From Paracoccaceae bacterium (GTDB taxonomy: Bacteria; Pseudomonadota; Alphaproteobacteria; Rhodobacterales; Rhodobacteraceae), in contig JASMHC010000015.1 in NCBI GenBank assembly GCA_030750975.1, positions 186,001 through 250,000 of the forward strand: a DNA stretch of 64,000 bases, given 5' to 3'. How positions within the stretch are numbered: the stretch's first letter is position 1; every line of letters begins with the position of its first letter. Position numbers and translations under genes: made by a program. Positions 22,076 to 47,338 of the stretch are shown here, piece by piece. Under the pieces are notes generated by a model. That model saw only the letters and a program-made list of their open reading frames with translations. It was not told the DNA's origin and searched no databases.

Positions 22076-24998
22076 CCCCTCAGACAGCCCGCGCTATTTC
22101 GGCGTTCCGGTTGGCGTCGATTTCCCCCGCGCCGTGGTCGATGGCCTGCGCGAAAGGCTGAAGGGCACCGCCCCCCACGCCATGGGCCGCGTCACGCTTT
22201 ACGTCAACACGCGGCGGATGCAGCGGCGTATTCGGTCGATCTATGATGCCGGTCCGGCGGGATTCGTGCCGAAAATCCGGTTGATCACCGATCTCTCCGA
22301 CACTCTTGACCTGTCGCATATCCCCAAACCCGTGCCCCCCCTGCGCCGGCGGCTTGAACTGGTGCGGTTGATCTCGGCCCTGCTGGATGCCGATCCCGAT
22401 CTTGCGCCGCGCTCTAGCCTGTTTGATCTGGCCGACAGCCTGATGAAACTGACCGAGGAAATGCAGGGCGAAGGCGTGCCGCCCGAGGCGATCCGAAATC
22501 TTGATGTCTCGGATCAGTCCGGCCATTGGGAGCGGGCGCTGAAATTCATCCATATCGTGCAGGGCTTTTTTCACGACCAGCACCAGGCACCGGACCGCGA
22601 AGCACGGCAGCGGCGGGTGATCGAAGAGATGGCCCGCCTCTGGTCGGCCAGCCCGCCTGACGATCCGGTGATCGTCGCCGGTTCAACCGGATCGCGCGGC
22701 GCAACGGCGCTGTTCATGAAAACGGTTGCCGCCTTACCGCAGGGGGGCGTGATCCTGCCCGGCTTTGATTTTGCCATGCCGGCAAACAGCTGGGACGATC
22801 TGACCGACGCCCTGACAGCCGAGGATCACCCGCAGTTTCGGTTTCGCAAGCTGATGGATGACGCCGGATTGCCAATGTCGGCGGTTCAGCCGTGGTCGGA
22901 CGCGCAACCGGCCTGCGATGCGCGGAACCGGCTGGTTTCGCTGGCTTTGCGGCCCGCGCCGGTGACGGATCAATGGCTGCGTGAAGGGCCGGATTTGGCG
23001 GGAATAGAGACGGCTTGCGCCCACCTGTCGCTTGTCGAAGCCCCCACCCCCCGCGCCGAGGCGCTGGCCATTGCCTTGCGGTTGCGCAAGGCGGCCCAGG
23101 ACGGCCAGACCGCCGCCCTGGTTACCCCCGACCGGCTTTTGACCCGGCGGGTCGAGGCGGCGTTGCAGCGTTGGAACATCCTGCCCGACGACAGCGCCGG
23201 CACCCCCTTGCAGCTGACCCCTCCGGGGCGGTTATTGCGGCATGTGCTGGGCCTGATCGGCGCTGAATTGACGGCCGAAGGGCTGTTGACGGTCCTGAAA
23301 CACCCGCTCACCCATGGTCACGCGCGGGGCCAGCACCAGCTTTGGACGCAAGAGCTTGAACTTGAGCTGCGCAAGAACGGCCCGCCCTTCCCGACGCGAA
23401 GCGCCTTACGCGCTTGGGCCGAAAAACAGCGGGTTGATGCAACGGATTGGCTGAACTGGATCTTCAACGCGATCGAGCCTCTGGCGGGCCTTGACCGCGC
23501 GGATTTCGGGGCGTTTCTTGAAACACATATCGCCGCGGCGGAAACGCTGGCGACCGGGCCGGATGCCGAAAAACAGTGTCTGTTATGGCAGAAAGACGCA
23601 GGTATCGAGGCGTTAAAGCATGTCACCGCCATGCGGAACGAAAGCGAATGCGGACTGACCCTGGACGTGGCCGATTATCGCAATCTCTTCGCGTCGATCC
23701 TGTCGCAGGGTCAGGTGCGCAACCCGGACACGCCGCATCCGAATATTCTGATCTGGGGCACGCTGGAAGCCCGTGTTCAGGGGGCTGATCTGCTGATCCT
23801 TGGCGGGCTGAACGAAGGCACATGGCCCGAGCGCCCCGACCCCGATCCTTGGATGAACCGCGCCATGCGGCTGAAAGCGGGTCTTTTGCTGCCCGAGCGG
23901 CGCATCGGTCTGTCGGCCCACGACTTCCAGCAAGCCATCGCCGCGCCCGAGGTCTGGCTGACCCGCGCCAAAAAGTCGGACGAGGCTGAAACCGTGCCGT
24001 CGCGCTGGGTGAACCGGCTGACCAACCTTCTGGGTGGGCTGGAGACGGGTAAACCAGCGTTGCAGGCCATGCGCGACCGAGGTGATTACTGGCTGGGGCT
24101 GGTCGAAGCGCTGGAGCAGCCCGTTGAGATTGCCAAAGCCAAACGTCCTTCGCCCCGCCCGCCGGTTGCCGCGCGTCCCAAGAGGCTGTCGATCACCGCG
24201 ATCAAACGGCTGATCCGCGATCCCTATGCCATCTATGCCCGCGACATTCTTGGATTACGCCCGCTGGATGCGCTGGTTCGATCGCCGGACGCGCCGCTGC
24301 GCGGCACTTTGGTGCATGAAATCATGGAGCAGTTCATCAAGGGCCGCAGCGACGAAACCCCTGAACAGGCGCGGGCGCGGCTTTTGGCAATAACCGAGAC
24401 TGTTCTTGCCCAAAACGCCCCATGGCCGACGGCGCGAAGCATCTGGAAATCCAAGGTCGAGCGGGTTGCCGATTGGTTTTTGGAACGCGAAATGGCGCGG
24501 TTGGGCAATATCCAGCGATCCTATGTTGAGGAAAAAGGTGCCCTGCATCTTACCAGCCCCGAATTCTGCCTGACCGCCAAAGCCGACCGGATTGACCGCG
24601 ATCAGGACGGGTTGCTGCGGATTTACGACTATAAAACCGGCAAGCCGCCATCGGAAAAACAGCAGCTTTTTTTCGACAAGCAATTATTGCTCGAAGCGGT
24701 CATGGCCCAGCGCGGCGCGTTCAAGAAAATCGCCGCCGCCGACGTGGCCGAGGCCACCTATATCGGGCTTGGCGCAACCCCGTCCGAGGTGTCTGCCCCA
24801 CTGAACCACAATGACGAAGGGCTTGAGGTGATGTGGACCAGATTTCTGGATCTGATCACCCGATACGAAGACCCTGAACAAGGCTATACCGCACGGCGCG
24901 CCATGTTCTCGGAAAAGGATTTCAGCGATTACGATCAACTGGCGCGGTTTGGCGAATGGGATATTTCGGACGATGCAAAGGCCGAGGATCTGACATGA
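22068..24998 (+). CDS. addB: Double-strand break repair protein AddB
   Basis: A 976-residue AddB subunit of the AddAB helicase-nuclease that processes DNA ends for RecA-dependent repair. The alphaproteobacterial form has an inactivated helicase fold over most of its length (NTRRMQRR, VAGSTGSRGAT, GTLEARVQGADLLILGGLNEGTWP) and a C-terminal PD-(D/E)xK nuclease whose core reads RIYDYKTGKPP, preceded by LRGTLVHEIMEQF. The ATG at 22068 (MFDPSDSPRYF) overlaps tsaE by 8 bp, and its stop overlaps addA in an ATGA, so expression of the pair is coupled. Confidence 0.94.
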   Translation: MFDPSDSPRYFGVPVGVDFPRAVVDGLRERLKGTAPHAMGRVTLYVNTRRMQRRIRSIYDAGPAGFVPKIRLITDLSDTLDLSHIPKPVPPLRRRLELVRLISALLDADPDLAPRSSLFDLADSLMKLTEEMQGEGVPPEAIRNLDVSDQSGHWERALKFIHIVQGFFHDQHQAPDREARQRRVIEEMARLWSASPPDDPVIVAGSTGSRGATALFMKTVAALPQGGVILPGFDFAMPANSWDDLTDALTAEDHPQFRFRKLMDDAGLPMSAVQPWSDAQPACDARNRLVSLALRPAPVTDQWLREGPDLAGIETACAHLSLVEAPTPRAEALAIALRLRKAAQDGQTAALVTPDRLLTRRVEAALQRWNILPDDSAGTPLQLTPPGRLLRHVLGLIGAELTAEGLLTVLKHPLTHGHARGQHQLWTQELELELRKNGPPFPTRSALRAWAEKQRVDATDWLNWIFNAIEPLAGLDRADFGAFLETHIAAAETLATGPDAEKQCLLWQKDAGIEALKHVTAMRNESECGLTLDVADYRNLFASILSQGQVRNPDTPHPNILIWGTLEARVQGADLLILGGLNEGTWPERPDPDPWMNRAMRLKAGLLLPERRIGLSAHDFQQAIAAPEVWLTRAKKSDEAETVPSRWVNRLTNLLGGLETGKPALQAMRDRGDYWLGLVEALEQPVEIAKAKRPSPRPPVAARPKRLSITAIKRLIRDPYAIYARDILGLRPLDALVRSPDAPLRGTLVHEIMEQFIKGRSDETPEQARARLLAITETVLAQNAPWPTARSIWKSKVERVADWFLEREMARLGNIQRSYVEEKGALHLTSPEFCLTAKADRIDRDQDGLLRIYDYKTGKPPSEKQQLFFDKQLLLEAVMAQRGAFKKIAAADVAEATYIGLGATPSEVSAPLNHNDEGLEVMWTRFLDLITRYEDPEQGYTARRAMFSEKDFSDYDQLARFGEWDISDDAKAEDLT

Positions 24999-27900
24999 AG
25001 CGCAACGACGCCACCGAAACCCAGATCCGCGCCGCGATCCCCGACCGTTCGACCTGGGTTGAGGCGAATGCAGGATCGGGCAAGACCCGCGTTTTGACCG
25101 ACCGGGTGGCGCGGTTGCTGCTGGAAGGTGTTCAGCCGCAGCATATTCTGTGCCTGACCTATACCAAGGCCGCCGCTTCTGAGATGCAGAACCGGCTGTT
25201 CCAGCGGCTTGGTGAATGGGCGATGATGAACAGCCGCGATCTTACGGATTCGCTGCAAGACCTTGGGGTCGAGCGGGTGATTGACGATCCGTTCCTTCGC
25301 CAGTCCCGCCGCCTGTTCGCGCAAGCGATCGAGGCGCCGGGCGGGCTGAAAATCCAGACGATCCACTCGTTCTGTTCGTCTTTGTTACGGCGGTTTCCCC
25401 GCGAAGCGCAGGTCAGCCCGCAATTCACCGAGATCGAAGGCCGCACCTCGGCCCTGCTTCGGCAAGAGGTGGTGGATCACATGGCCATGTCCGAGCACAA
25501 GCCTTTGGTAGACGGGCTGGCGCAACATTACACGGGCGAGGATTTTGAGGCGCTGACGGCGGAAATCCTGAAACACGCGGATCGGGTTGGCGAAAAAGAC
25601 AAGTCCGGGATTTGGGATGCCTTTGGGCTGAGGGCCGGGGAAACGCGCAAAACAGTCTCTGATAAGGTGTTTATGGGGGATGAAGGCGATATTCTGAACG
25701 CTTTGATCCCGTTGCTTTTGGCCTCGGGCACCAACGATCAAAAGGCGGGGCATGCGTTAAAGCGCGTGGCGACAGGCGATTTCGGGTCGCTTCCCATTTT
25801 GGAAAACGTCTTGTTATTTGGCGCCAAGGCCAAGGAACCGTTCTCGGCCAAGGTCGGCAAATTCCCCACCAAGGCCCTGTGCGCCGCAAACCCCGAACTG
25901 ATCGAGCGGCTTAACGGGCTGATGTTGCGGGTCGAGGATGCGCGCAACACCCGTCTGTCTTTGCTTGCCGCCGAAAAAACCTGTGCCCTGCATCGCTTTG
26001 CGAAGGTCTTTATCAGTCTCTATTCCAGCCGAAAACAGGCTTTGGGCTATCTTGATTTTGACGATCTGATCTTGCGGGCACGTGACCTGCTGACCGATCC
26101 GGCAGTGGCGCAATGGGTACTGTTCCGGCTGGATGGCGGCATTGATCATATCCTTGTGGACGAGGCGCAGGATACCAGCCCTGTCCAGTGGGCGGTGATT
26201 GAAAGGCTGGCGCAGGAATTCACCAGCGGCGAAGGGGCGCGGGCCGGTGTGACGCGCACGCTTTTCGTGGTGGGGGACAAAAAGCAGTCGATCTATTCCT
26301 TTCAGGGCGCTGATCCGGGGGCGTTTGACCGGATGCGGGACGAATTTGGCAAGCGGTTGCGGGCGGTAAACTCTGATCTTTATGACGTGCCGATGTCCTT
26401 TTCCTTCAGGTCGTCGCCTGCGGTTCTGAACATGGTTGATTACAGTTTTCAGGCAGGGCTTGAGGATGCCATTGGCCAAAGCTCAAACCATCGCGCGTTC
26501 AACAGCGATTTGCCCGGTCGCGTCGATCTTTGGCCGCGTGTGGCCTATGTCTCGGACGAGGACGACAAGAACTGGTCCGAACCGGTCGATCTGCCCGGTC
26601 AGAAAAACCACAAGGTGGTGCTGGCCCATCATGTGGCCGATGAAATCAAGCGCCTGACGCAAGAGGAAACACTTCCCGTAAAGGATAAGGACACCGGTGA
26701 AATCTATCGCCGCCAGGTAAGGCCGGGGGATATCATGGTGCTGGTGCGCGGCCGGACCGGCGGGCTTTTCCACCAGATCATTCAGGCCTGCAAATCCCGC
26801 GATTTGCCGATTGCCGGGGCGGACCGGCTGAAAGTCGGGGCCGAACTGGCGGTGCGCGATCTGGCGGCGCTTTTGTCGTTCCTCGCCCTGCAAGAGGATG
26901 ACCTTAGCCTTGCGACGGCGCTGAAATCTCCGCTGTTCGGATGGTCCGAGCAAGCGTTGTACACCCTGGCCCATGGCCGCAATGATCGCAGGCTTTGGCA
27001 GGTCTTGCGCGAGCGCGGTGATCAGCACCCAAAAACCATGGCTGTGCTGAATGATCTGCGCGACAAGGCCGATTTCCTGCGCCCTTACGAGCTGATCGAG
27101 CGGATTCTGACCCGCCATGACGGGCGGCTTAATCTGTTGGGTCGGCTGGGACAAGAGGCTGAGGATGGAATCAATGCCCTGCTGGCCCAGGCCCTGGCCT
27201 ATGAACAGGCCAGCACCCCCAGCCTGACCGGATTCCTTGTCTGGATGCAGGAAGATGCGCTTGAAATCAAACGCCAGATGGAAAGCGGAGGAGATCTGAT
27301 CAGGGTGATGACGGTGCATGGCTCAAAAGGGCTGGAAGCGCCGATTGTGATCCTGCCGCAAACCACACCGCCGCAAAACGATGTGAAGGACGAGATTTTC
27401 CCAACCGGCGATGGGTTGTTTTGGAAAACCAGATCCGAAGACATGCCCGAAATCATGCGGGCGGCGAAAGACGCCCTGCTTGAGAAGCGCGAGAACGAGC
27501 ATATGCGGCTTTTGTATGTGGCGATGACGCGGGCCGAGAAATGGCTGATCGTGGCGGGGGTCGAGCAGAAAAAAGGATCGGGCCGCGGATGGTATGATGT
27601 GGTCAGCACCGGTATGGAACATGCAGGCGGCGTGGCGCAGGACTTTCCGACCGGACAGGGGCTGCGCTATGCCGTCGGCGACTGGGCGGGCGGTGAGCTG
27701 CGTAGCGACGCGCAGGCAAAGCCCGCGTTACCTGAACTGCCGCCCTGGGCGGGGTATGATGCGCCCGAAATCAAGGCGGCGACAGAAACGCTCAGCCCAT
27801 CTGATCTGGGCGGCGCCAAGGCGCTGGCATCCGATCTGGGCATGGATGACGAGACGGCAAAGGCCTATGGCAGTGCGGTTCACGCCTTGCTTGAACATTT

Positions 27901-31420: not shown

Positions 31421-31735
31421 CTACGCCGCCTCGTGATCCCATTCCAACCGCTCAACATCGACGGTGATCGTGTTTTCGGCATGCCACGCATCATGCTGCA
31501 TCTGTAGCGCCAGCCAGAACCGCGCCTTGTTACCGAAAGCCAACCCAAGGCGCTGCGCCATTTCCATCGACACGGATTTACGTTCGTTGATCAGGCCCGA
31601 CAGGGCCTGACGCGAAACGCCGAGGTGATTGGCGAGTTCGGTCACGTTCATCCCAAGCGCGGGCATGATATCCTCGCGCAGGATTTCACCCGGATGCGAT
31701 GGCTGGAATGCGGGAAGATTGGTTTTACCTGCCAT
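31421..31735 (-). CDS. higA: HigA-type antitoxin
   Basis: A 104-residue HigA antitoxin. It opens with the family phrase PSHPGEILREDIMPALGM and carries an XRE/Cro helix-turn-helix (VTELANHLGVSRQALSGLINERKSVSMEMAQRLGLAF). It binds HigB and its own promoter. The ATG at 31735 follows GAGGAT and overlaps the end of higB by 11 bp. Confidence 0.9.
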   Translation of the reverse strand: MAGKTNLPAFQPSHPGEILREDIMPALGMNVTELANHLGVSRQALSGLINERKSVSMEMAQRLGLAFGNKARFWLALQMQHDAWHAENTITVDVERLEWDHEAA

Positions 31736-32015
31736 GGTAATCCTCGAGATCAATATCAAATGGCCCGACGTCATCCCATCTGTAGGTGACACGCCAGTTT
31801 TTGTTTACCTTTACCGAGTATGTGCCCAACCGGTTGCCTTCCAATTGGTGCCAGCTATAGCTCGGTATATCCAAGTCCTCGGGCTTTTCAGCAGTATTCA
31901 ATGCTGAAAGTATCCGCCGAATCTTCGGAACCCAGTCGGGCCGTAATTTGCTTACGTCCCCTTTGGCCACATATCGCTTCAGCCCCTTATGCCGAATTTT
32001 GCCCGGGTTCATCAT
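31725..32015 (-). CDS. higB: HigB-type mRNA interferase toxin
   Basis: A 96-residue RelE/HigB toxin that would cleave ribosome-bound mRNA. The features IRHKGLKRYVAKGD, LPSYSW-like IPSYSWHQLEGNRLGTYSVKV and NWRVTYRW match the family. The gene precedes and overlaps higA, the normal higBA order, and the pair is read opposite to hslU and to the MFS gene. Two adjacent ATGs (32015 and 32012) are possible starts. Confidence 0.9.
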   Translation of the reverse strand: MMNPGKIRHKGLKRYVAKGDVSKLRPDWVPKIRRILSALNTAEKPEDLDIPSYSWHQLEGNRLGTYSVKVNKNWRVTYRWDDVGPFDIDLEDYHGR

Positions 32016-38125: not shown

Positions 38126-38955
38126 CGCAATACGGCGGCCCGGGCTTTTTCGTCAACTTCGGGACGCATGCCAAACCAGCGCTCAAACCCCGGCACCGCC
38201 TGATGCAACAACATGCCCAGCCCGTCCACCGTGCGGCAGCCGATTTCGGCCGCTTCATCCAGCAGCTTGGTTTGCAGCGGTGTATAAACGATATCCGAAA
38301 CCACGGCCTTCGGGCTAAGCCCTTTCAATGGCACACGAAATTCGCCCTTACCAACCATGCCAAGGCTGGTGGTATTGACCACGGTCGCGGCCTCTTCCAG
38401 CATTTCGCCGGATTTCACCCAATCCACGACCGAGATTTTCGCACCGAAATCCGATTTCATATTCTCCGCCCGAATCCGCGTGCGGTTTGACAGCAGAATT
38501 TCCGGCACCCCTTCTTCCAGCAAGGCCGAGATGATCGCCCGCGCCGCGCCGCCCGCGCCAAGAACCGCACAAGGACCGGCGGTTGGGTCCCAATCGGGTG
38601 CGCCGCTTTTCATGTTCTGGATAAATCCGTGACCATCCGTGTTATCGGCATAAATGCTGCCATCTTCACTGAAACTCAGCGTATTCGCCGCACCAATCAA
38701 CGTGGCCCGATCCGAGACCTTGTCGGCAATGGCCAGCGCCTTTTCCTTATGCGGAATGGTGATGTTGCAACCGACAAAGCCCATTTTGGGCAGGGTGCGC
38801 AACACAGTCTCAAGATCGGATTCAACCACATCCATCGGGATGTAATGTCCGGTTATACCCAGCTCGCGAAACCAATGGCGAAACAGAGCAGGGGATTTAC
38901 TATGGGCAATCGGATGTCCGATGACGCCGGCAATGGGGATTTTCTGGTCACTCAT
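38122..38955 (-). CDS. aroE: Shikimate dehydrogenase (NADP+)
   Basis: A 277-residue enzyme of the shikimate pathway, reducing 3-dehydroshikimate to shikimate. The substrate-site motif SKSPALFRHWF, the catalytic Lys in ITIPHKEKAL, the Asp in NTDGHGFI and the NADP loop GAGGAARAI are all present. The start overlaps the maf stop (ATGA). Confidence 0.95.
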   Translation of the reverse strand: MSDQKIPIAGVIGHPIAHSKSPALFRHWFRELGITGHYIPMDVVESDLETVLRTLPKMGFVGCNITIPHKEKALAIADKVSDRATLIGAANTLSFSEDGSIYADNTDGHGFIQNMKSGAPDWDPTAGPCAVLGAGGAARAIISALLEEGVPEILLSNRTRIRAENMKSDFGAKISVVDWVKSGEMLEEAATVVNTTSLGMVGKGEFRVPLKGLSPKAVVSDIVYTPLQTKLLDEAAEIGCRTVDGLGMLLHQAVPGFERWFGMRPEVDEKARAAVLR

Positions 38956-39551
38956 CCGTTCAAAATTCCTCGGACCGTAAGATAGGATAACAACTCAAGC
39001 AAAGGCACTCCTAGGATTGTAAAGTAATCTCCGTCAATGCGCGAGAACAGTCTGACACCTTCTTCCTCAAGCTTGTACCCCCCGACGGAATGACGGATCG
39101 ACCCCCAGTTACGGGTTACATAATCCTCAAGATAACTGTCCGAGAAATCCCGCATGGTCAGACGCGCCACACCGACATGGCGCCATTTTGGAATGCCGCC
39201 TTCATAGACCACTGCCGCCGACAGCAATGCATGCTGGCCGTTGCGCAATGCCCTTAGCTGGTGTCGCGCCTCGTCGGGATCGCGCGGCTTTGACAAGATC
39301 CGACCACCGAATTCCAACACCTGATCGCATCCGATCACCAAGGCATCGGGGTTCTTCAGCGAAACCTTGCGGGCTTTTCCGTCGGCCAATGCATCCGCCA
39401 CATCCCGGGGCAGGGCGCCCTCGGCCATCATGGCGGCCTTAATGGTTTCTTCATCAATTCGGGCAAGGCTGGTTGTCACCGCCACACCGGCATTTTGCAG
39501 CAATGTCTTTCGGATTTCCGATGCTGAGGCAAGAATGATGGAACCACTCAT
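38952..39551 (-). CDS. maf: Maf-family nucleotide pyrophosphatase (YceF type)
   Basis: A 199-residue Maf protein, hydrolysing non-canonical or methylated nucleoside triphosphates to monophosphates. The N-terminus ILASASEIRKTLLQNAGV, the general-base Asp in VIGCDQVLEFGG, and the C-terminal SVGGYKLEEEGVRLF and GVPLLELL segments match. The ATG at 39551 lies at the edge of the origin region; its last base is shared with a perfect DnaA box. It heads the leftward operon maf-aroE-coaE-dnaQ. Confidence 0.92.
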   Translation of the reverse strand: MSGSIILASASEIRKTLLQNAGVAVTTSLARIDEETIKAAMMAEGALPRDVADALADGKARKVSLKNPDALVIGCDQVLEFGGRILSKPRDPDEARHQLRALRNGQHALLSAAVVYEGGIPKWRHVGVARLTMRDFSDSYLEDYVTRNWGSIRHSVGGYKLEEEGVRLFSRIDGDYFTILGVPLLELLSYLTVRGILNG

Positions 39552-39559
39552 GTGGATAA
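39551..39559 (-). promoter_or_regulatory. Perfect DnaA box
   Basis: TTATCCACA on the minus strand, identical to the strongest E. coli DnaA box, at the maf side of the origin region. It starts on the last base of the maf start codon complement, so DnaA bound here could also affect maf expression. Confidence 0.85.
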
Positions 39560-39706
39560 CTCCGTGGGCAAGCCCGTGGGAAACTGGGTGACAATCCCGT
39601 GGCACTTCGGGCTGATCGGGGATAATCCGGCCCATCTGGGCAAAACCCGCTGATTTATACTTGGTCTGTTCAAATTCATCCCTTGTGGGTTTGAACAAGT
39701 TTTTCC

Positions 39707-39715
39707 TGTGGGTAA
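39707..39715 (-). promoter_or_regulatory. DnaA box, one mismatch
   Basis: TTACCCACA on the minus strand, differing from the consensus at one position, inside the origin region. Confidence 0.7.
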
Positions 39716-39865
39716 AGGGCAAATCCCCGAAATTCTCAAGATTATCCCCGAACAGTGGTAATTCTTAAGCTATTGTAATTATTTATATACTTTCGGTAAT
39801 CCCATGCTTACCCCCAATTTTACCCCCGACATGCACCTTGGTGGACAAGTCTTGGGACCATTCAA

Positions 39866-39874
39866 TAATCCACA
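39866..39874 (+). promoter_or_regulatory. DnaA box, one mismatch
   Basis: TAATCCACA on the plus strand, differing from TTATCCACA at position two, between the two AT-rich stretches of the origin region. Confidence 0.7.
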
Positions 39875-39987
39875 GAAATCCTTGCCCCTACAAAATCATC
39901 AACTTTCTTTTCTTTCTTTATTATTTATTTAGAAAGAAAGGCCACGCGGGATCCCCTTTTCGCGATTTGCTTTGAAAGGCTGAAAAG

Positions 39988-40443
39988 ATGATCGGCGATA
40001 TCCTGATCCTAATCTATCCATGGGTGAAAGCCGTTCATATCATGGCCGTGATCAGCTGGATGGCGGGGCTGTTCTATCTGCCCAGATTGTTTGTCTATCA
40101 TGCGGAGCGGGTTGAACCGGGCAGTGACACCGATGCGCTGTTCCAAACGATGGAGGTTAAGCTGCTGCGCTTCATCATGAATAATGCGATGGTTACTGCC
40201 TGGATTGCCGGCATTCTTATGGCCTTCACTCCGGGGATCATCGATTGGAGCGCTGTGTGGCCCTATACCAAGCTGATTGGCATTCTGGGTATGACATGGT
40301 TCCATATGTGGCTGGCTGGCCGCCGCAAGGATTTTGAACGGGGTGCGAACCTGCTGACCGGCCGCCGATACCGGATGATGAACGAAGTGCCGACTGTGCT
40401 GATGATCGTGATCGTGGTCTCGGTCGTGGTGCGCCCGTTCTGA
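39988..40443 (+). CDS. hemJ: Protoporphyrinogen IX oxidase HemJ
   Basis: A 151-residue membrane protein with four helices, the usual HemJ size. The first helix carries the family His/Tyr pattern in VKAVHIMAVISWMAGLFYLPRLFVYH, and the loop MTWFHMWLAGRRKDF contains the conserved His/Lys region. HemJ oxidises protoporphyrinogen IX to protoporphyrin IX in bacteria lacking HemG/HemY-type oxidases. It is the first gene on the right of oriC. The ATG at 39988 follows GAAAGGC. Confidence 0.88.
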   Translation: MIGDILILIYPWVKAVHIMAVISWMAGLFYLPRLFVYHAERVEPGSDTDALFQTMEVKLLRFIMNNAMVTAWIAGILMAFTPGIIDWSAVWPYTKLIGILGMTWFHMWLAGRRKDFERGANLLTGRRYRMMNEVPTVLMIVIVVSVVVRPF

Positions 40444-40572: not shown

Positions 40573-41841
40573 ATGACCGACCGTTTGAACCTTGCCGATC
40601 TCAAGGCCAAAAGCCCCAAAGACCTTCTGGCCATGGCCGAAGAGCTTGAGATCGAAAATGCCTCGACCATGCGCAAGGGCGAAATGATGTTCCAGATCCT
40701 GCGCGAACGTGCGGATGAAGGCTGGGAAGTATCAGGCGACGGTGTGCTGGAAGTGCTGCAAGATGGCTTTGGCTTCCTGCGCTCGCCCGAGGCGAATTAT
40801 CTGCCCGGTCCTGACGACATTTACGTCTCGCCCGACATGATCAAGAAGTTTTCGTTGCGCACCGGTGACACAATTGACGGGGTGATCAAGGCCCCGGACG
40901 GGGAAGAGCGTTACTTTGCCCTGACCAATGTTTCGAAGATCAATTTCGAAGATCCCGAAAAAGCCAAGCACAAGATCAACTTTGACAACCTGACGCCGCT
41001 TTACCCCGACGAGCGTCTGAAAATGGAAACCAACGATCCGGCGACCAAAGACCGGTCGGCGCGGATCATTGATCTGGTGGCGCCTATCGGTAAAGGCCAG
41101 CGGTCGCTGATCGTGGCCCCTCCGCGGACCGGTAAGACGGTGATCCTGCAAAACATCGCCAACTCGATCGAGAAGAACCACCCTGAATGCTATCTGATCG
41201 TGTTGCTGATCGATGAACGCCCCGAAGAGGTGACGGATATGCAGCGCTCGGTGAAGGGCGAAGTTGTCTCGTCAACCTTTGACGAACCGGCCACCCGTCA
41301 CGTGGCCGTGGCCGAAATGGTGATCGAGAAAGCCAAGCGTCTGGTTGAACATAAGCGTGATGTCGTGATCCTTCTTGATTCGATCACCCGCCTGGGCCGC
41401 GCGTTCAACACCGTTGTGCCATCCTCGGGCAAGGTTCTGACCGGCGGCGTGGACGCCAATGCCCTACAACGCCCCAAGCGGTTCTTTGGTGCCGCGCGGA
41501 ATATCGAAGAGGGCGGGTCGCTGACCATCATCTCAACCGCTCTGATCGACACGGGCAGCCGGATGGACGAGGTGATTTTCGAAGAATTCAAAGGCACCGG
41601 TAACTCGGAAATCGTTCTTGATCGCAAGATCGCCGACAAGCGTGTCTTCCCGGCCATCGACATTCTTAAATCTGGCACGCGGAAAGAGGATCTGCTGGTC
41701 GACAAAGTCGATCTTCAGAAAACATTCGTTCTGCGCCGTATCCTGAACCCGATGGGCACCACCGACGCCATCGAGTTCCTGATTTCGAAACTGAAGCAGA
41801 CCAAGACCAACGAAGAATTCTTCGATTCAATGAACGCCTGA
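40573..41841 (+). CDS. rho: Transcription termination factor Rho
   Basis: A 422-residue hexameric RNA helicase. The N-terminal Rho domain begins [21 protein letters not shown], followed by the RNA-binding cold-shock-like domain ([34 protein letters not shown]) and the ATPase domain with Walker [15 protein letters not shown], the [12 protein letters not shown] segment, and the Q/R-loop region [14 protein letters not shown]. The length and motifs are complete. An AGGAG site precedes the ATG. Confidence 0.97.
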
Positions 41842-41866
41842 TCCTCGGGTCAGGGGGCCTGACGGC

Positions 41867-43150
41867 ATGGACACGATCTTTGCACTCGCCACCGCTCAGG
41901 GCAAAGCGGGCGTCGCCGTGGTCCGGGTATCCGGGCCATCGGCCTTTGCGGCCTGCGAAACGCTTTGCGGATCATTGCCCGAACCGCGCATGGCGTCTCT
42001 GCGCCGTTTGACAGGGGCCAAGGGCACTCTTCTGGACGAGGCGCTGGTGCTGGTGTTTCAAGCCGGTCACAGTTTCACTGGTGAAAATGTTGTCGAATTA
42101 CAGCTTCACGGGTCTGTGGCGATCATCCGCGCCGTCCTGGCGACGCTTGGCGATATGGACGGTTTGCGGCTGGCCGAGCCAGGCGAATTTACCCGCCGCG
42201 CGCTGGAAAACGAACGCCTGGACCTTGCCCAGATCGAAGGCCTGTCAGACCTGATCGAAGCTGAAAGCGAAGCACAGCGCCGTCAGGCGATGCGCGTTTT
42301 CGAAGGGGCGCTGGGCGACAAGGCCGAAACCTGGCGGCGCGATCTGATCCGCGCGGCGGCGCTGATAGAAGCGACCATAGATTTCGCCGATGAAGACGTG
42401 CCCGAGGATGTGATGCCCGAGGTTTCGGATTTGCTGACCAGGGTTGAAGAGTCTTTGCGCGATGAGGCGACAGGCGCAAAAATTGCCGAACGTATCCGGG
42501 AAGGGTTTGAGATTGCAATCATTGGCGCGCCAAACGCCGGAAAATCTACTCTTCTCAATATGTTAGCCGGTCGTGACGCGGCGATAACCTCGGAATATGC
42601 CGGTACGACGCGGGACATTATCGAGGTGCGGATGGATCTTGGCGGCTTGCCGGTCACATTGCTTGACACGGCTGGTTTGCGTAACACGGATGACCCCGTT
42701 GAAGGTATCGGAATTGATCGCGCCATCGCGCGTGCGGAACGTGCGGATTTGCGGGTTTTCCTGATGTCCGATCACCCTTTGTCGATGACACCGGGACCCG
42801 AGGATATCGTCTTGCGCGGCAAGGCCGATATCGTGCCCGGCGATGAACCCGGAATTTCGGGCAAGACGGGGGAAGGGGTTTCCGATCTCGTCGACCGTAT
42901 CTCAGATACTTTGACGGCCCGCGCAACGGGCGTGAAAACCGCGATTCGCGAACGTCACAGGATCGCCATCGAGCAGGGAATCTCGGGCATTCTGGCGGCG
43001 AAGCGCCTGCTGGCTCAGGGGGCCGAATTTTCCGACCTTGCCGCGGAAGAACTGCGCAGCGTTGTCCGGTCGCTCGATTCTCTGGTGGGTCGCGTGGATG
43101 TCGAGAATCTGTTAGACGAGATTTTCGCCAGCTTTTGCCTCGGCAAGTAA
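41867..43150 (+). CDS. mnmE: tRNA uridine-5-carboxymethylaminomethyl modification GTPase MnmE
   Basis: A 427-residue GTPase that with MnmG modifies the wobble uridine of tRNAs. The N-terminal tetrahydrofolate-binding domain ([21 protein letters not shown]) is followed by helices and an inserted G domain with [12 protein letters not shown] (G1) and [13 protein letters not shown] (G3). The C-terminus FCLGK has the catalytic Cys needed for modification. The mnmG ribosome-binding site directly abuts the stop codon. Confidence 0.96.
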
Positions 43151-43154
43151 GGAG

Positions 43155-43170
43155 TGTTTCACGTGAAACA
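43155..43170. promoter_or_regulatory. parS centromere site 1
   Basis: TGTTTCACGTGAAACA, a perfect 16-bp palindrome identical to the bacterial parS consensus bound by ParB. It lies between the mnmG ribosome-binding site and the first codons of mnmG, and contains the preferred GTG start codon (43163-43165). Confidence 0.96.
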
Positions 43171-45028: not shown

Positions 45029-45627
45029 GCGATTTGAATGTTTCACGTGAAACAATGCAAAGGCTGGAGCATTACCTTTCGCTGCTGAAAAAGTGGAATC
45101 CATCGATAAATCTGGTCGCTAAATCCACGATTGACGAAGCCTGGACACGCCATTTCACCGATTCCATCCAAATTTATCGTCATGCGCCCGAAAACTGGAG
45201 AATCTGGGCCGATTTGGGCAGCGGAGGCGGCTTCCCCGGCGCGGTCATTGCGATCATGGCGCAGGAACTCAATCCGGCAGGCACGGTGAGTTTGGTCGAA
45301 AGCGACCAGCGCAAATCCACCTTTCTGCGAACGGTTTTTCGCGAAACCGGCGTCAACGCCAAGGTCATCACGCAACGGATTGAAGCGACCGAACCCCTGA
45401 GCGCCGATATCATTTCCGCCCGCGCTCTTGCGGAGTTAACCACTCTTTTAGAATTTGCGCATATTCACGGTAAACCAAGCGTAACCTGCCTGTTTCCAAA
45501 AGGCGAAAGTTGGGAAAAAGAGCTTTTGGTGGCGCAAGAATCGTGGTCATTCGGGTGCGAGGTGATTAAAAGTGAAACCAACCCGCAAGCGACTGTTCTG
45601 AAAGTTAAGGATCTGACACGTGCCTGA
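45025..45627 (+). CDS. rsmG: 16S rRNA (guanine-527-N7)-methyltransferase RsmG
   Basis: A 200-residue SAM-dependent methyltransferase (GidB) that methylates G527 in 16S rRNA. SAM motif I is [29 protein letters not shown] and SARALAEL are typical. The N-terminus NVSRET is encoded by a parS site. It starts in the mnmG stop (ATGA) and overlaps parA by 8 bp. Confidence 0.95.
45039..45054. promoter_or_regulatory. parS centromere site 2
   Basis: A second perfect copy of the 16-bp palindrome (see site 1), inside codons 5-10 of rsmG. The reading frame through it gives NVSRET, the common beginning of RsmG proteins in bacteria that keep parS here. Confidence 0.96.
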
Positions 45628-46423
45628 TCTCAGCTCCAACCATCCGCGCATTATTTCTGTTGCGAACCAGAAGGGCGGGGTGGGCAAAACGACGACCACG
45701 ATCAATCTGGCCGCCGCGATGGCCGAGCTTGGTTTTAAGGTGCTGGTGGTTGATCTGGACCCGCAGGGCAATGCTTCGACCGGTCTGGGAATTGCCGCAA
45801 ATGAACGCGCTGTAACGACCTATGACCTGTTGTTGGAAGAAACCGATCTGAAATCGGCGATCCGCAACACAAGCACGAAGGGTATTTCGATCATTCCGGC
45901 GACAACCGACCTTAGTTCGGCTGATATGGAGCTGTTTTCAAACGATCACCGCAGCACTTTGCTGCGTAAGGCTTTGCGCAGCAATGCGATGGAGAATTTC
46001 GGGTTTCACTTTATCTTTATCGACTGCCCACCGTCGCTTTCGCTGCTGACGGTGAATGCGATGGTGGCTTCGGATTCGGTGCTGGTGCCGCTGCAAAGCG
46101 AATTTTTTGCGCTTGAGGGCTTGTCTCAGCTGATGCTGACCATTCGCGAGGTGCGCCAAACCGCCAATAAGGGTTTGCGGATCGAAGGCATTGTCTTAAC
46201 GATGTATGACCAGCGCAACAATCTTTCGCAGATGGTGGACGAAGACGCGCGGGAAAACCTTGGGGATCTGGTGTTCAAGACACAAATCCCCCGCAACGTT
46301 CGCGTGTCCGAGGCGCCTTCTTTTGCGGTTCCGGTGTTGGAATATGACGGAAACTCGAAGGGTGCTTTGGCCTATCGGGCGCTGGCCAAAGAGGTTTTGC
46401 AGCGATACCGTAAAGCGGCCTGA
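45620..46423 (+). CDS. parA: Chromosome partitioning ATPase ParA
   Basis: A 267-residue ParA/Soj ATPase that moves ParB-parS complexes during segregation. The deviant Walker A motif VANQKGGVGKTTTTINLA, Walker A' VLVVDLDPQGNASTGLG and Walker B FIFIDCPPSLSLLTVNAM are complete. It starts with GTG at 45620 behind AAGGA, overlapping rsmG by 8 bp. ParB follows after 24 bp, forming the mnmE-mnmG-rsmG-parA-parB cluster. Confidence 0.96.
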   Translation: MPDLSSNHPRIISVANQKGGVGKTTTTINLAAAMAELGFKVLVVDLDPQGNASTGLGIAANERAVTTYDLLLEETDLKSAIRNTSTKGISIIPATTDLSSADMELFSNDHRSTLLRKALRSNAMENFGFHFIFIDCPPSLSLLTVNAMVASDSVLVPLQSEFFALEGLSQLMLTIREVRQTANKGLRIEGIVLTMYDQRNNLSQMVDEDARENLGDLVFKTQIPRNVRVSEAPSFAVPVLEYDGNSKGALAYRALAKEVLQRYRKAA

Positions 46424-46447
46424 CGGCAGCAGAATAGAAAGAAAAGC

Positions 46448-47338
46448 ATGGTTAAGAAAAAGGGTTTGGGGCGCGGTCTGTCCGCATTGATGGCGGATGT
46501 CACCGAGGCAGAAACGGTTTCTGAAAACACCGCCAATCCGGGCGAGCGTCGGGCCGATAGCATTGTTCCGATTGAGAAAATTCACCCCAACCCCGACCAG
46601 CCGCGCCAGAGCTTTGTTGAAAGCGATTTGCGCGATCTGGCGAATTCGATTCGCGAAAAGGGCGTGATCCAACCGCTGATCGTTCGGCAGATTGACGGCG
46701 GAGATTACCAGATTGTCGCCGGTGAACGCCGCTGGCGGGCGGCGCAGCTGGCGCAGCTGCATGACCTACCGGTACTGGTGCGCGATTTTGACGACACCGA
46801 AGTTCTGGAAATTGCGATCATTGAAAACATCCAGCGGGCCGACCTGAATCCGGTGGAAGAGGCGTTGGGGTATCGCCAATTGATGGAGCGGTTTGGCCAC
46901 ACTCAAGAAAAGATGGCCGAGGCGCTGGGGAAATCCCGCAGTCACATCGCGAACCTTCTACGTCTGTTGAACCTGCCCGAGACGGTGCAAGAGTTTTTGC
47001 GCCGTGGCGATCTGTCCGCGGGCCATGCACGCGCTTTGGTTACGGCGGATGATCCCGAAGGATTGGCGCGTAAGGTTATCGCGGGCGGGCTGTCGGTGCG
47101 GCAGACCGAGGGTTTGGCCAGGAAGGGCACTGATGATAAGCCCGCGAAAGCCAGGAAAACCTCAGCCGGGGCGGCGAAAGATGCCGACACAATCGCGCTT
47201 GAGGGCGATTTGTCGGCCGCACTTGGTTTGAAGGTGGTGCTAAATCACCCCTCCGGGGCGGAATCAGGGTCGATCACCATCAAGTATGACACTCTGGATC
47301 AACTGGACGATCTGTGTAGCCTTCTGACCAAAGGGTGA
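46448..47338 (+). CDS. parB: Chromosome partitioning protein ParB
   Basis: A 296-residue ParB. It begins KKGLGRGLSALMADV, has the CTP-binding box GERRWRAAQLA, the helix-turn-helix for parS (TQEKMAEALGKSRSHIANLLRLLNLP) and a C-terminal dimerisation domain (GSITIKYDTLDQLDDLCSLL). It loads on the two parS sites 1.4 and 3.3 kb upstream and spreads as a CTP-dependent clamp. It is convergent with hemW, ending one base before it. Confidence 0.96.
   Translation: MVKKKGLGRGLSALMADVTEAETVSENTANPGERRADSIVPIEKIHPNPDQPRQSFVESDLRDLANSIREKGVIQPLIVRQIDGGDYQIVAGERRWRAAQLAQLHDLPVLVRDFDDTEVLEIAIIENIQRADLNPVEEALGYRQLMERFGHTQEKMAEALGKSRSHIANLLRLLNLPETVQEFLRRGDLSAGHARALVTADDPEGLARKVIAGGLSVRQTEGLARKGTDDKPAKARKTSAGAAKDADTIALEGDLSAALGLKVVLNHPSGAESGSITIKYDTLDQLDDLCSLLTKG

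What the first reader, a model, noticed from the sequence alone, without database searches (positions are those of the whole stretch)
39541..39990. Chromosomal oriC between maf and hemJ
A 436-bp gene-free, AT-rich stretch with at least three good DnaA boxes, two candidate unwinding regions, flanking leading-strand genes pointing outwards on both sides, and parS-parAB 3-7 kb away. The maf-aroE-coaE-dnaQ side matches the Caulobacter origin neighbourhood, but here hemJ, not hemE, faces it.
Basis: partly seen in the sequence, partly recalled or inferred. Interest (0 to 1): 0.75.

Follow-up and report, generated by a model that had tools for sequence, protein, structure and literature searches.

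The report
Chromosome replication origin, gene-stripped flanks
This is very probably the spot where the bacterium starts copying its chromosome; it is the ordinary origin of its family, unusual only in that genes which sit beside it in related groups have been lost from both sides.

Summary
The 436-bp gap between maf and hemJ (39552-39987) is almost certainly the chromosomal origin. On the 633-kb contig that holds the window (1 of 22 contigs; the others were not scanned), the GC-skew minimum falls at 39961, the only cluster of three near-perfect DnaA boxes within 450 bp starts at 39551, and the least stable 50 bp is 39889-39939. The only two parS sites found lie 3-5 kb away. maf|gap|hemJ-rho holds in 79 of 80 relatives, and a complete relative's sampled skew minimum lies near the same gap.

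The 'hemJ, not hemE' puzzle has a likely answer. In 18 of 20 class genomes examined the order is maf-PPRP | gap | hemE, with hemH before hemJ in 16. In this family these genes have left the origin's edges, and intermediates survive: PPRP|hemE-hemJ in one genome, PPRP|hemJ in two.

The best-conserved part of the gap is the right-hand DnaA box plus a G-free tract whose Cs recur every 3 bases, running into the unwinding region. It sits where DnaA-trios should be but fails their published central-adenine rule. Similar tracts lie beside hemE where hemE flanks the origin, so it belongs to the origin rather than hemJ.

Ordinary origin; mild novelty.

The parts
39552..39987 (.). oriC: gene-free gap between maf and hemJ
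   Evidence: contig GC-skew minimum at 39961; gap lower in GC than its surroundings in 80 of 80 sequences, 79 relatives plus window
39551..39559 (-). DnaA box, exact TTATCCACA; overlaps the first base of maf's start codon
   Evidence: conserved at the maf start in the 81-sequence alignment and in the same-genus genome G058
39617..39625 (-). weak DnaA-like site TTATCCCCG
   Evidence: matrix scan
39707..39715 (-). DnaA box TTACCCACA
39742..39750 (+). weak DnaA-like site TTATCCCCG where the family consensus is TTATCCACA
39808..39816 (+). weak DnaA-like site TTACCCCCA
39840..39848 (-). weak DnaA-like site TTGTCCACC
39866..39874 (+). right-hand DnaA box TAATCCACA, the box next to the unwinding tract
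39885..39931 (+). G-free tract CCCCTACAAAATCATCAACTTTC..., C spaced by 3 in relatives; predicted deviant DnaA-trio array, first CTA at 39888, 13 nt after the box
   Evidence: box plus first part of the tract (39866-39907) found once in the genome at up to 3 mismatches
39889..39939 (.). predicted DNA unwinding element; least stable 50 bp of the 633-kb contig
   Evidence: nearest-neighbour stability scan
38952..39551 (-). maf, left flanking gene; aroE, coaE and dnaQ follow to 36817 (these three named from their ORFs by reading)
39988..40443 (+). hemJ (UPF0093, PF03653; the name hemJ is recalled), right flanking gene; rho 40573, mnmE 41867, mnmG 43154, rsmG 45025 follow (named by reading, conserved by tblastn)
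43155..43170 (.). parS, exact TGTTTCACGTGAAACA (motif recalled)
45039..45054 (.). parS, exact
45620..47338 (+). parA and parB (named by reading)

Best explanation
The gap 39552-39987 is the chromosomal oriC. DnaA is inferred to bind the box at maf's start, the central boxes and the right-hand box TAATCCACA at 39866. From the right-hand box it is inferred to extend over one strand of the G-free tract at 39885-39931 and open the weakest duplex of the region (39889-39939), where helicase is loaded and two forks leave. ParB on the two parS sites 3-5 kb to the right then segregates the new origins. Shown here: location by skew on one contig, box cluster, stability minimum, conservation, synteny. 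Inferred from known biology: DnaA binding, unwinding, helicase loading, ParB action. The origin stayed in place while the family lost hemH, hemE and PPRP from its flanks, probably in that order, which is why hemJ and maf now face it.
For: Skew minimum of the 633,200-bp contig at window 39961; purine minimum at 40602. Only cluster of three or more boxes in 450 bp, and the least stable 50 bp, on that contig. Boxes with at most one mismatch average 2.91 per gap in 80 sequences (79 relatives plus window) against 0.11 in shuffles. maf|gap|hemJ-rho in 79 of 80 relatives; 72 of them show the whole order to parB and the other 7 contigs end earlier. Complete 3.56-Mb relative G061: sampled skew minimum around 3.43 Mb and maximum around 1.54 Mb, with the maf/hemJ gap at 3.4775 Mb. 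Only two parS sites found in the genome, both near. maf-PPRP | gap | hemE in 18 of 20 class genomes examined. Intermediates PPRP|hemE-hemJ and PPRP|hemJ.
Against: The skew minimum is shallow; the next lowest point more than 5 kb away is at window 22347, the keto minimum is at 25046, and the AT-skew curve does not turn here. The left arm within 50 kb shows no leading-strand gene bias. Only one contig of 22 was scanned for skew and box clusters. Several central boxes have drifted (TTATCCCCG, TTACCCCCA). dnaA is on another contig, which from the contig lengths puts it at least about 280 kb away, whereas PMC8116508 describes dnaA as conserved close to ori in Rhodobacterales. The loss order is not certain: outside the family 4 of 20 regions lack hemH between hemE and hemJ, and one (L247) has hemE and hemH but no PPRP match. 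No DnaA binding or read-depth data.
Confidence: 0.95

Rival explanations
1. The G-free CCCTAC..CATCATC tract and the AT-rich run are the promoter or leader of hemJ, conserved for expression of hemJ rather than for unwinding.
For: In the family the longest G-free run ends a median of 37 nt from the right end of the sequence used, which includes about 10 nt of hemJ, so it is close enough to be a leader; in the window it ends 57 nt before the hemJ start. No transcription data.
Against: A forward box followed by trinucleotide pairs such as CTACTAC or CATCATC also occurs upstream of hemE in 9 of 18 gaps where hemE flanks the origin, against 1 on the reverse strand and 0.1 in shuffles (the list of pairs was drawn up after seeing the sequences). 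By eye a similar box-plus-tract is present in the three intermediates. No Rfam match up to E = 1 in 39300-40200.
Confidence: 0.1
2. The origin lies elsewhere in the neighbourhood, such as near window 22-25 kb, or on another contig, and this gap is only a DnaA-titrating or regulatory cluster.
For: GC-skew value at 22347 is only slightly higher (-3000 against -3067) and the keto minimum is at 25046. 21 contigs were not scanned.
Against: The box cluster and the stability minimum are unique to the gap on the contig; synteny puts a gap with boxes at this place across the family and in many class genomes; complete relative agrees.
Confidence: 0.03
3. The tract is a canonical DnaA-trio array (central adenine conserved) and I have the register wrong.
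For: The loose published pattern, a box with up to 2 mismatches then at least three NAN triplets starting within 16 nt, is met in 54 of 81 family gaps against 12.7 in shuffles. The family form ..ATCATCATC.. gives central A in one register.
Against: The opposite strand also reaches 31 of 81; in hemE-type gaps it is 4 of 18 forward, 5 of 18 reverse, 1.6 in shuffles. The strict [G/A]A[T/A] form is met in 2 of 81 and 0 of 18. In the window the loose pattern is met at another box (39742), not at the conserved tract. In the register set by the 13-nt spacer the triplets read CTA CAA AAT CAT CAA CTT, mostly without the central T on the plus strand.
Confidence: 0.2

Closest known systems
Caulobacter crescentus oriC (Cori) and the hemE/COG1806-flanked alphaproteobacterial origins (PMC1914354, passages read)
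   Same: About 400 bp, AT-rich, DnaA boxes. In 20 unnamed class regions: maf-aroE-coaE-dnaQ on the left in 18, hemJ in 20 (by selection) and rho in 19 on the right; mnmE follows on the same strand in 12 and parA in 7, the 20-kb stretches often ending first
   Different: hemE, hemH and PPRP (PF03618, Kinase-PPPase; PMC1914354 calls the gene COG1806, and equating the two is mine) are gone from the flanks; no CtrA site TTAA-N7-TTAA, no IHF consensus and no GANTC in the window gap
Origins of 101 Rhodobacteraceae chromosomes predicted with Ori-Finder (PMC6699656, passages read)
   Same: Same criteria: near the GC-disparity minimum, local GC minimum, near parAB. That the window belongs to this family is inferred from the names of its nearest relatives
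   Different: The passages seen do not describe flanking genes or the box-plus-tract module; 'maf', 'hemJ' and 'hemE' occur 0 times in the main text
Bacterial basal unwinding system, DnaA boxes plus DnaA-trios (PMC8287927, passages read)
   Same: Forward box, 13-nt spacer (published peak 10-13), then a one-strand tract running into the AT-rich region
   Different: Central adenine not conserved; the most constant letter is the first base (C on the plus strand, G on the strand DnaA would bind)

Membership tests
Bacterial DnaA-dependent chromosomal oriC | Lies at the GC-skew minimum | tested here: met
   Contig minimum at 39961; shallow, and only one of 22 contigs scanned
Bacterial DnaA-dependent chromosomal oriC | Cluster of DnaA boxes | tested here: met
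   Only cluster of three or more in 450 bp on 633 kb
Bacterial DnaA-dependent chromosomal oriC | AT-rich, easily melted element beside a box | tested here: met
   39889-39939 least stable 50 bp of 633 kb
Bacterial DnaA-dependent chromosomal oriC | Autonomous replication or read-depth peak | not testable with these tools
   Needs bench or read data
Caulobacter-type hemE/COG1806 origin | hemE on one side, COG1806 (PPRP) on the other | tested here: not met
   hemE is on contig C14 beside hemC; no PPRP match in the genome
Caulobacter-type hemE/COG1806 origin | Wider gene order maf-aroE-coaE-dnaQ | origin | hemJ-rho-mnmE-mnmG-rsmG-parAB | tested here: met
   Window against 20 unnamed class regions: left block in 18, hemJ-rho in 19, the rest only in part of them (mnmE in 12, parA in 7), one with that block inverted. 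Caulobacter itself was not read
Caulobacter-type hemE/COG1806 origin | CtrA sites TTAA-N7-TTAA | tested here: not met
   0 in the window gap. In the family 10 of 81 gaps have one (mean 0.12, shuffled 0.02), so some relatives may keep them
Basal unwinding system with DnaA-trios | DnaA box with a following tract whose first triplet starts within 16 nt | tested here: met
   Box 39866-39874, first CTA at 39888, spacer 13 nt
Basal unwinding system with DnaA-trios | At least three consecutive triplets with central adenine | tested here: not met
   Not met at the conserved site in the window (met at 39742 instead); strict form in 2 of 81 family gaps

The most novel reading that the evidence does not exclude
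Alphaproteobacterial origins share an unwinding tract in which the constant letter of each DnaA-trio is the first base (3'-GNN-5') rather than the central adenine. The deviant trios that the trio authors suspected would then be the rule in this class, and the window carries one form of it.
Probability: 0.4. Interest if true: 0.5.

Novelty: new member of a known kind. Interest (0 to 1): 0.35.

Why it matters
It places the origin of this genome on several independent lines and, by synteny, points to the origin of its relatives. The intermediates suggest that the genes beside a chromosome origin can be lost one at a time on both sides while the origin itself does not move. The conserved box-plus-tract module gives a short, testable target for the question of what sequence DnaA reads when it opens alphaproteobacterial origins.

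Tried and rejected
Skew alone was not accepted as proof: the minimum is shallow, and the keto and AT skews do not agree with it. The count of DnaA boxes over the whole 64-kb window is no more than chance; only their clustering counts. The published DnaA-trio pattern was tested and not met at the conserved site. CtrA and IHF sites: none in the window gap; in the family both are a little above mononucleotide shuffles (CtrA in 10, IHF in 8 of 81 gaps), which I did not follow. An RNA in the gap: no Rfam match up to E = 1. A gapped pattern of an exact box followed by CCCTAC found nothing in the genome, because the window's box there is TAATCCACA. One of the ten proteins sent to Pfam, an ORF in L164, gave no family; it lies out of frame with the HemJ match there. 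A longer maf from an upstream TTG (39722) was rejected: the Maf domain starts at residue 5 of the ATG form, and the maf frame is open for 57 codons upstream in only 12 of 79 relatives. Paper searches listed no paper whose title or abstract start describes this flank loss or the tract; oriC+Maf+hemJ gave 0 papers and DnaA-trio+Alphaproteobacteria one, on epsilonproteobacteria. Four papers were seen in passages (PMC6699656, PMC8287927, PMC1914354, PMC8116508), the rest as listings, and supplements could not be opened.

Full report
WHAT IS THERE. The gap between maf (minus strand, start codon at 39549-39551) and hemJ (plus strand, start at 39988) is 436 bp; no gene was recognised in it. Its AT content is 55.5% against a mean of 40.9% for 436-bp windows of the contig. 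DnaA boxes with at most one mismatch are at 39551-39559 (exact), 39707-39715 and 39866-39874. A matrix built from the gaps of relatives and the window adds weaker sites at 39617, 39742, 39808 and 39840.

IS IT MORE THAN CHANCE. Over the whole 64-kb window the number of boxes is unremarkable: 10, expected 5.9, and 7 of 100 shuffles reach it. Their clustering is not: on the 633,200-bp contig there are 86 such boxes and one single place with three or more within 450 bp, which starts at 39551. The least stable 50 bp of that contig is 39889-39939, inside the gap. With 75- and 100-bp windows, 2 and 4 other regions of the contig are at least as unstable, but none within the 64-kb window.

The genome is a draft of 22 contigs, so the test was run on contig C15 only. 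Its cumulative GC skew has its minimum at contig position 225961, window 39961, inside the gap. The purine skew minimum is at 40602. Against this, the minimum is shallow (-3067, with -3000 at 22347), the keto minimum is at 25046, the AT skew does not follow, and the left 50 kb shows no leading-strand gene bias (0.48), though the right 50 kb does (0.75). Skew by itself therefore places the origin to within about 20 kb; the box cluster, stability minimum and synteny place it in the gap.

SEGREGATION SITES. The genome has two parS sites at up to two mismatches, both exact, at window 43155 and 45039; the reversed control pattern found one palindromic site at the same tolerance. parA and parB follow at 45620-47338. 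dnaA is on contig C9, so at least about 280 kb from the gap by the contig lengths. This sits ill with a published statement that dnaA is conserved close to ori in Rhodobacterales (PMC8116508, passages).

RELATIVES. A scan with HemJ gave 510 relatives, of which the best 80 were kept. In 79 of 80, maf(-) | gap | hemJ(+)-rho(+) holds; 72 of these show the whole order to parB, and the other 7 contigs end earlier. The exception, L021 (Paracoccus lutimaris), has the right side but no match to the left genes within 8 kb. The gap, as measured from the protein matches, is 356-436 nt and lower in GC than its surroundings in 80 of 80 sequences, 79 relatives plus the window. Boxes with at most one mismatch average 2.91 per gap against 0.11 in shuffles. 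In G061, an unnamed single-contig genome of the family (3,558,757 bp), 39 evenly spaced 20-kb samples give a cumulative skew minimum around 3.43 Mb and a maximum around 1.54 Mb; the maf/hemJ gap lies at 3.4775 Mb. In a further 20 kb taken around the gap the local minimum is at 3,475,899, 1.6 kb from it. The samples from 0 to about 0.5 Mb are mixed in sign, and those at 0.99 and 3.33 Mb go against the trend.

WHY hemJ AND NOT hemE. Of 58 class genomes searched, 40 have both HemJ and HemE. By my reading of those tables, 33 have hemE within 2 kb of hemJ and 7 do not, among them G000 and G022 of this family; for 6 of the 7 the two lie on different contigs of drafts. I fetched regions from 20 of the 33. 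In 18 of 20 the order is maf-PPRP(-) | gap | hemE(+), with hemH between hemE and hemJ in 16 of 20; two (L247, L248) gave no PPRP match, and L248 none of the left genes. Pfam confirmed PPRP (PF03618) in four class loci and ferrochelatase in two. In G000 hemE is on contig C14 beside hemC, hemH is on C15 about 42 kb to the right of the gap, and PPRP gave no match. PPRP gave no match in 38 of 41 family genomes. The three that keep it look like intermediates: G062 has PPRP | gap | hemE-hemJ without hemH between, and G059 and G073 have PPRP | gap | hemJ. The simplest history within the family is loss of hemH, then hemE, then PPRP from the flanks of an origin that stayed in place. No tree was built, and outside the family hemH or PPRP can be missing on its own (L244, L248, L254, L258; L247), so the order is a guess.

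THE CONSERVED MODULE. In an alignment of 81 gaps (79 loci, the window and G061) the strongest blocks are the box at maf's start and the right-hand module TAATCCACA ... CCCTACAA.ATCATCATCTTTT.TTTT. The same two blocks stand out against the same-genus genome G058, while the rest of the gap is much less alike; G058 and L001 share a 39-nt piece of this module letter for letter and are probably not independent. The longest G-free run of the plus strand averages 41.9 nt in the 81 gaps (shuffled 19.2) and 31.8 nt in 18 hemE-type gaps (shuffled 17.9). The longest C-free run, the control for the other strand, averages 23.9 and 21.8. In the first 26 nt of the run, C residues recur at lag 3 (0.44 against 0.32 shuffled in the family, 0.50 against 0.39 in hemE-type gaps) and lag 6 (0.37, 0.51), and at the other lags up to 7 are below shuffled. 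The run was taken as the longest in each gap, and in some gaps it is not the module. In the window it runs 39885-39931 and leads into the stability minimum. A 42-nt piece of box and tract occurs once in the genome at up to 3 mismatches.

WHAT THE TRACT MAY BE. By position it matches the DnaA-trio element of the basal unwinding system: a forward box, a 13-nt spacer (published peak 10-13), then triplets (PMC8287927, passages read). By sequence it does not meet the published rule of at least three triplets with central adenine at this site. The strict form occurs in 2 of 81 family gaps and 0 of 18 hemE-type gaps. The loose form is met in 54 of 81 against 12.7 in shuffles, but the opposite strand gives 31 of 81; in hemE-type gaps it is 4 of 18 forward, 5 reverse and 1.6 in shuffles; and in the window it is met at another box, 39742. 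A list of trinucleotide pairs (CTACTAC, CATCATC and the like, drawn up after seeing the sequences) follows a forward box in 59 of 81 family gaps (reverse 0, shuffles 0.7) and 9 of 18 hemE-type gaps (reverse 1, shuffles 0.1). The trio authors themselves suspected deviant trios without the central adenine. I read the tract as such a deviant array with the first base constant; this is inference. It belongs to the origin rather than to hemJ, because similar tracts lie beside hemE where hemE flanks the origin and, by eye, in the intermediates.

COMPARISON WITH WHAT IS KNOWN. The Caulobacter and Rickettsia origins lie between hemE and COG1806 (PMC1914354, passages). Taking COG1806 to be PPRP rests on my own knowledge. 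Rhodobacteraceae origins were assigned for 101 chromosomes by skew, DnaA boxes and nearness to parAB (PMC6699656, passages). parAB was found near the origin in almost all alphaproteobacterial genomes of another study, with some exceptions, Rhodobacterales among them (PMC8116508, passages). The window is thus a new instance of a known kind.

VERDICT. Chromosomal origin, 0.95. Unwinding from the right-hand box through the G-free tract, likely but untested. Deviant trio reading, about 0.4. Interest is modest: the origin is ordinary; the flank erosion with living intermediates and the tract are the parts worth a specialist's look.

Noticed in passing
39552-39987 and related gaps: GANTC sites are above mononucleotide-shuffled level in 18 hemE-type origins (3.28 per gap against 1.71) but not in 81 gaps of this family (1.16 against 1.60), and the window gap has none.
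   Followed up: partly
31421-32015, minus strand: Two small overlapping genes that read like a HigB/HigA-type toxin-antitoxin pair (name from reading the ORFs, not from a search).
   Followed up: no
39612-39627 and 39740-39755: A 16-nt inverted repeat, 94% complementary, around TTATCCCCG sites inside the origin.
   Followed up: no
40573-41867: rho and mnmE are neighbours here, while in the 12 class regions where both were found in order 1.3-8.1 kb separate them, so the right arm of the origin region is compacted too.
   Followed up: partly
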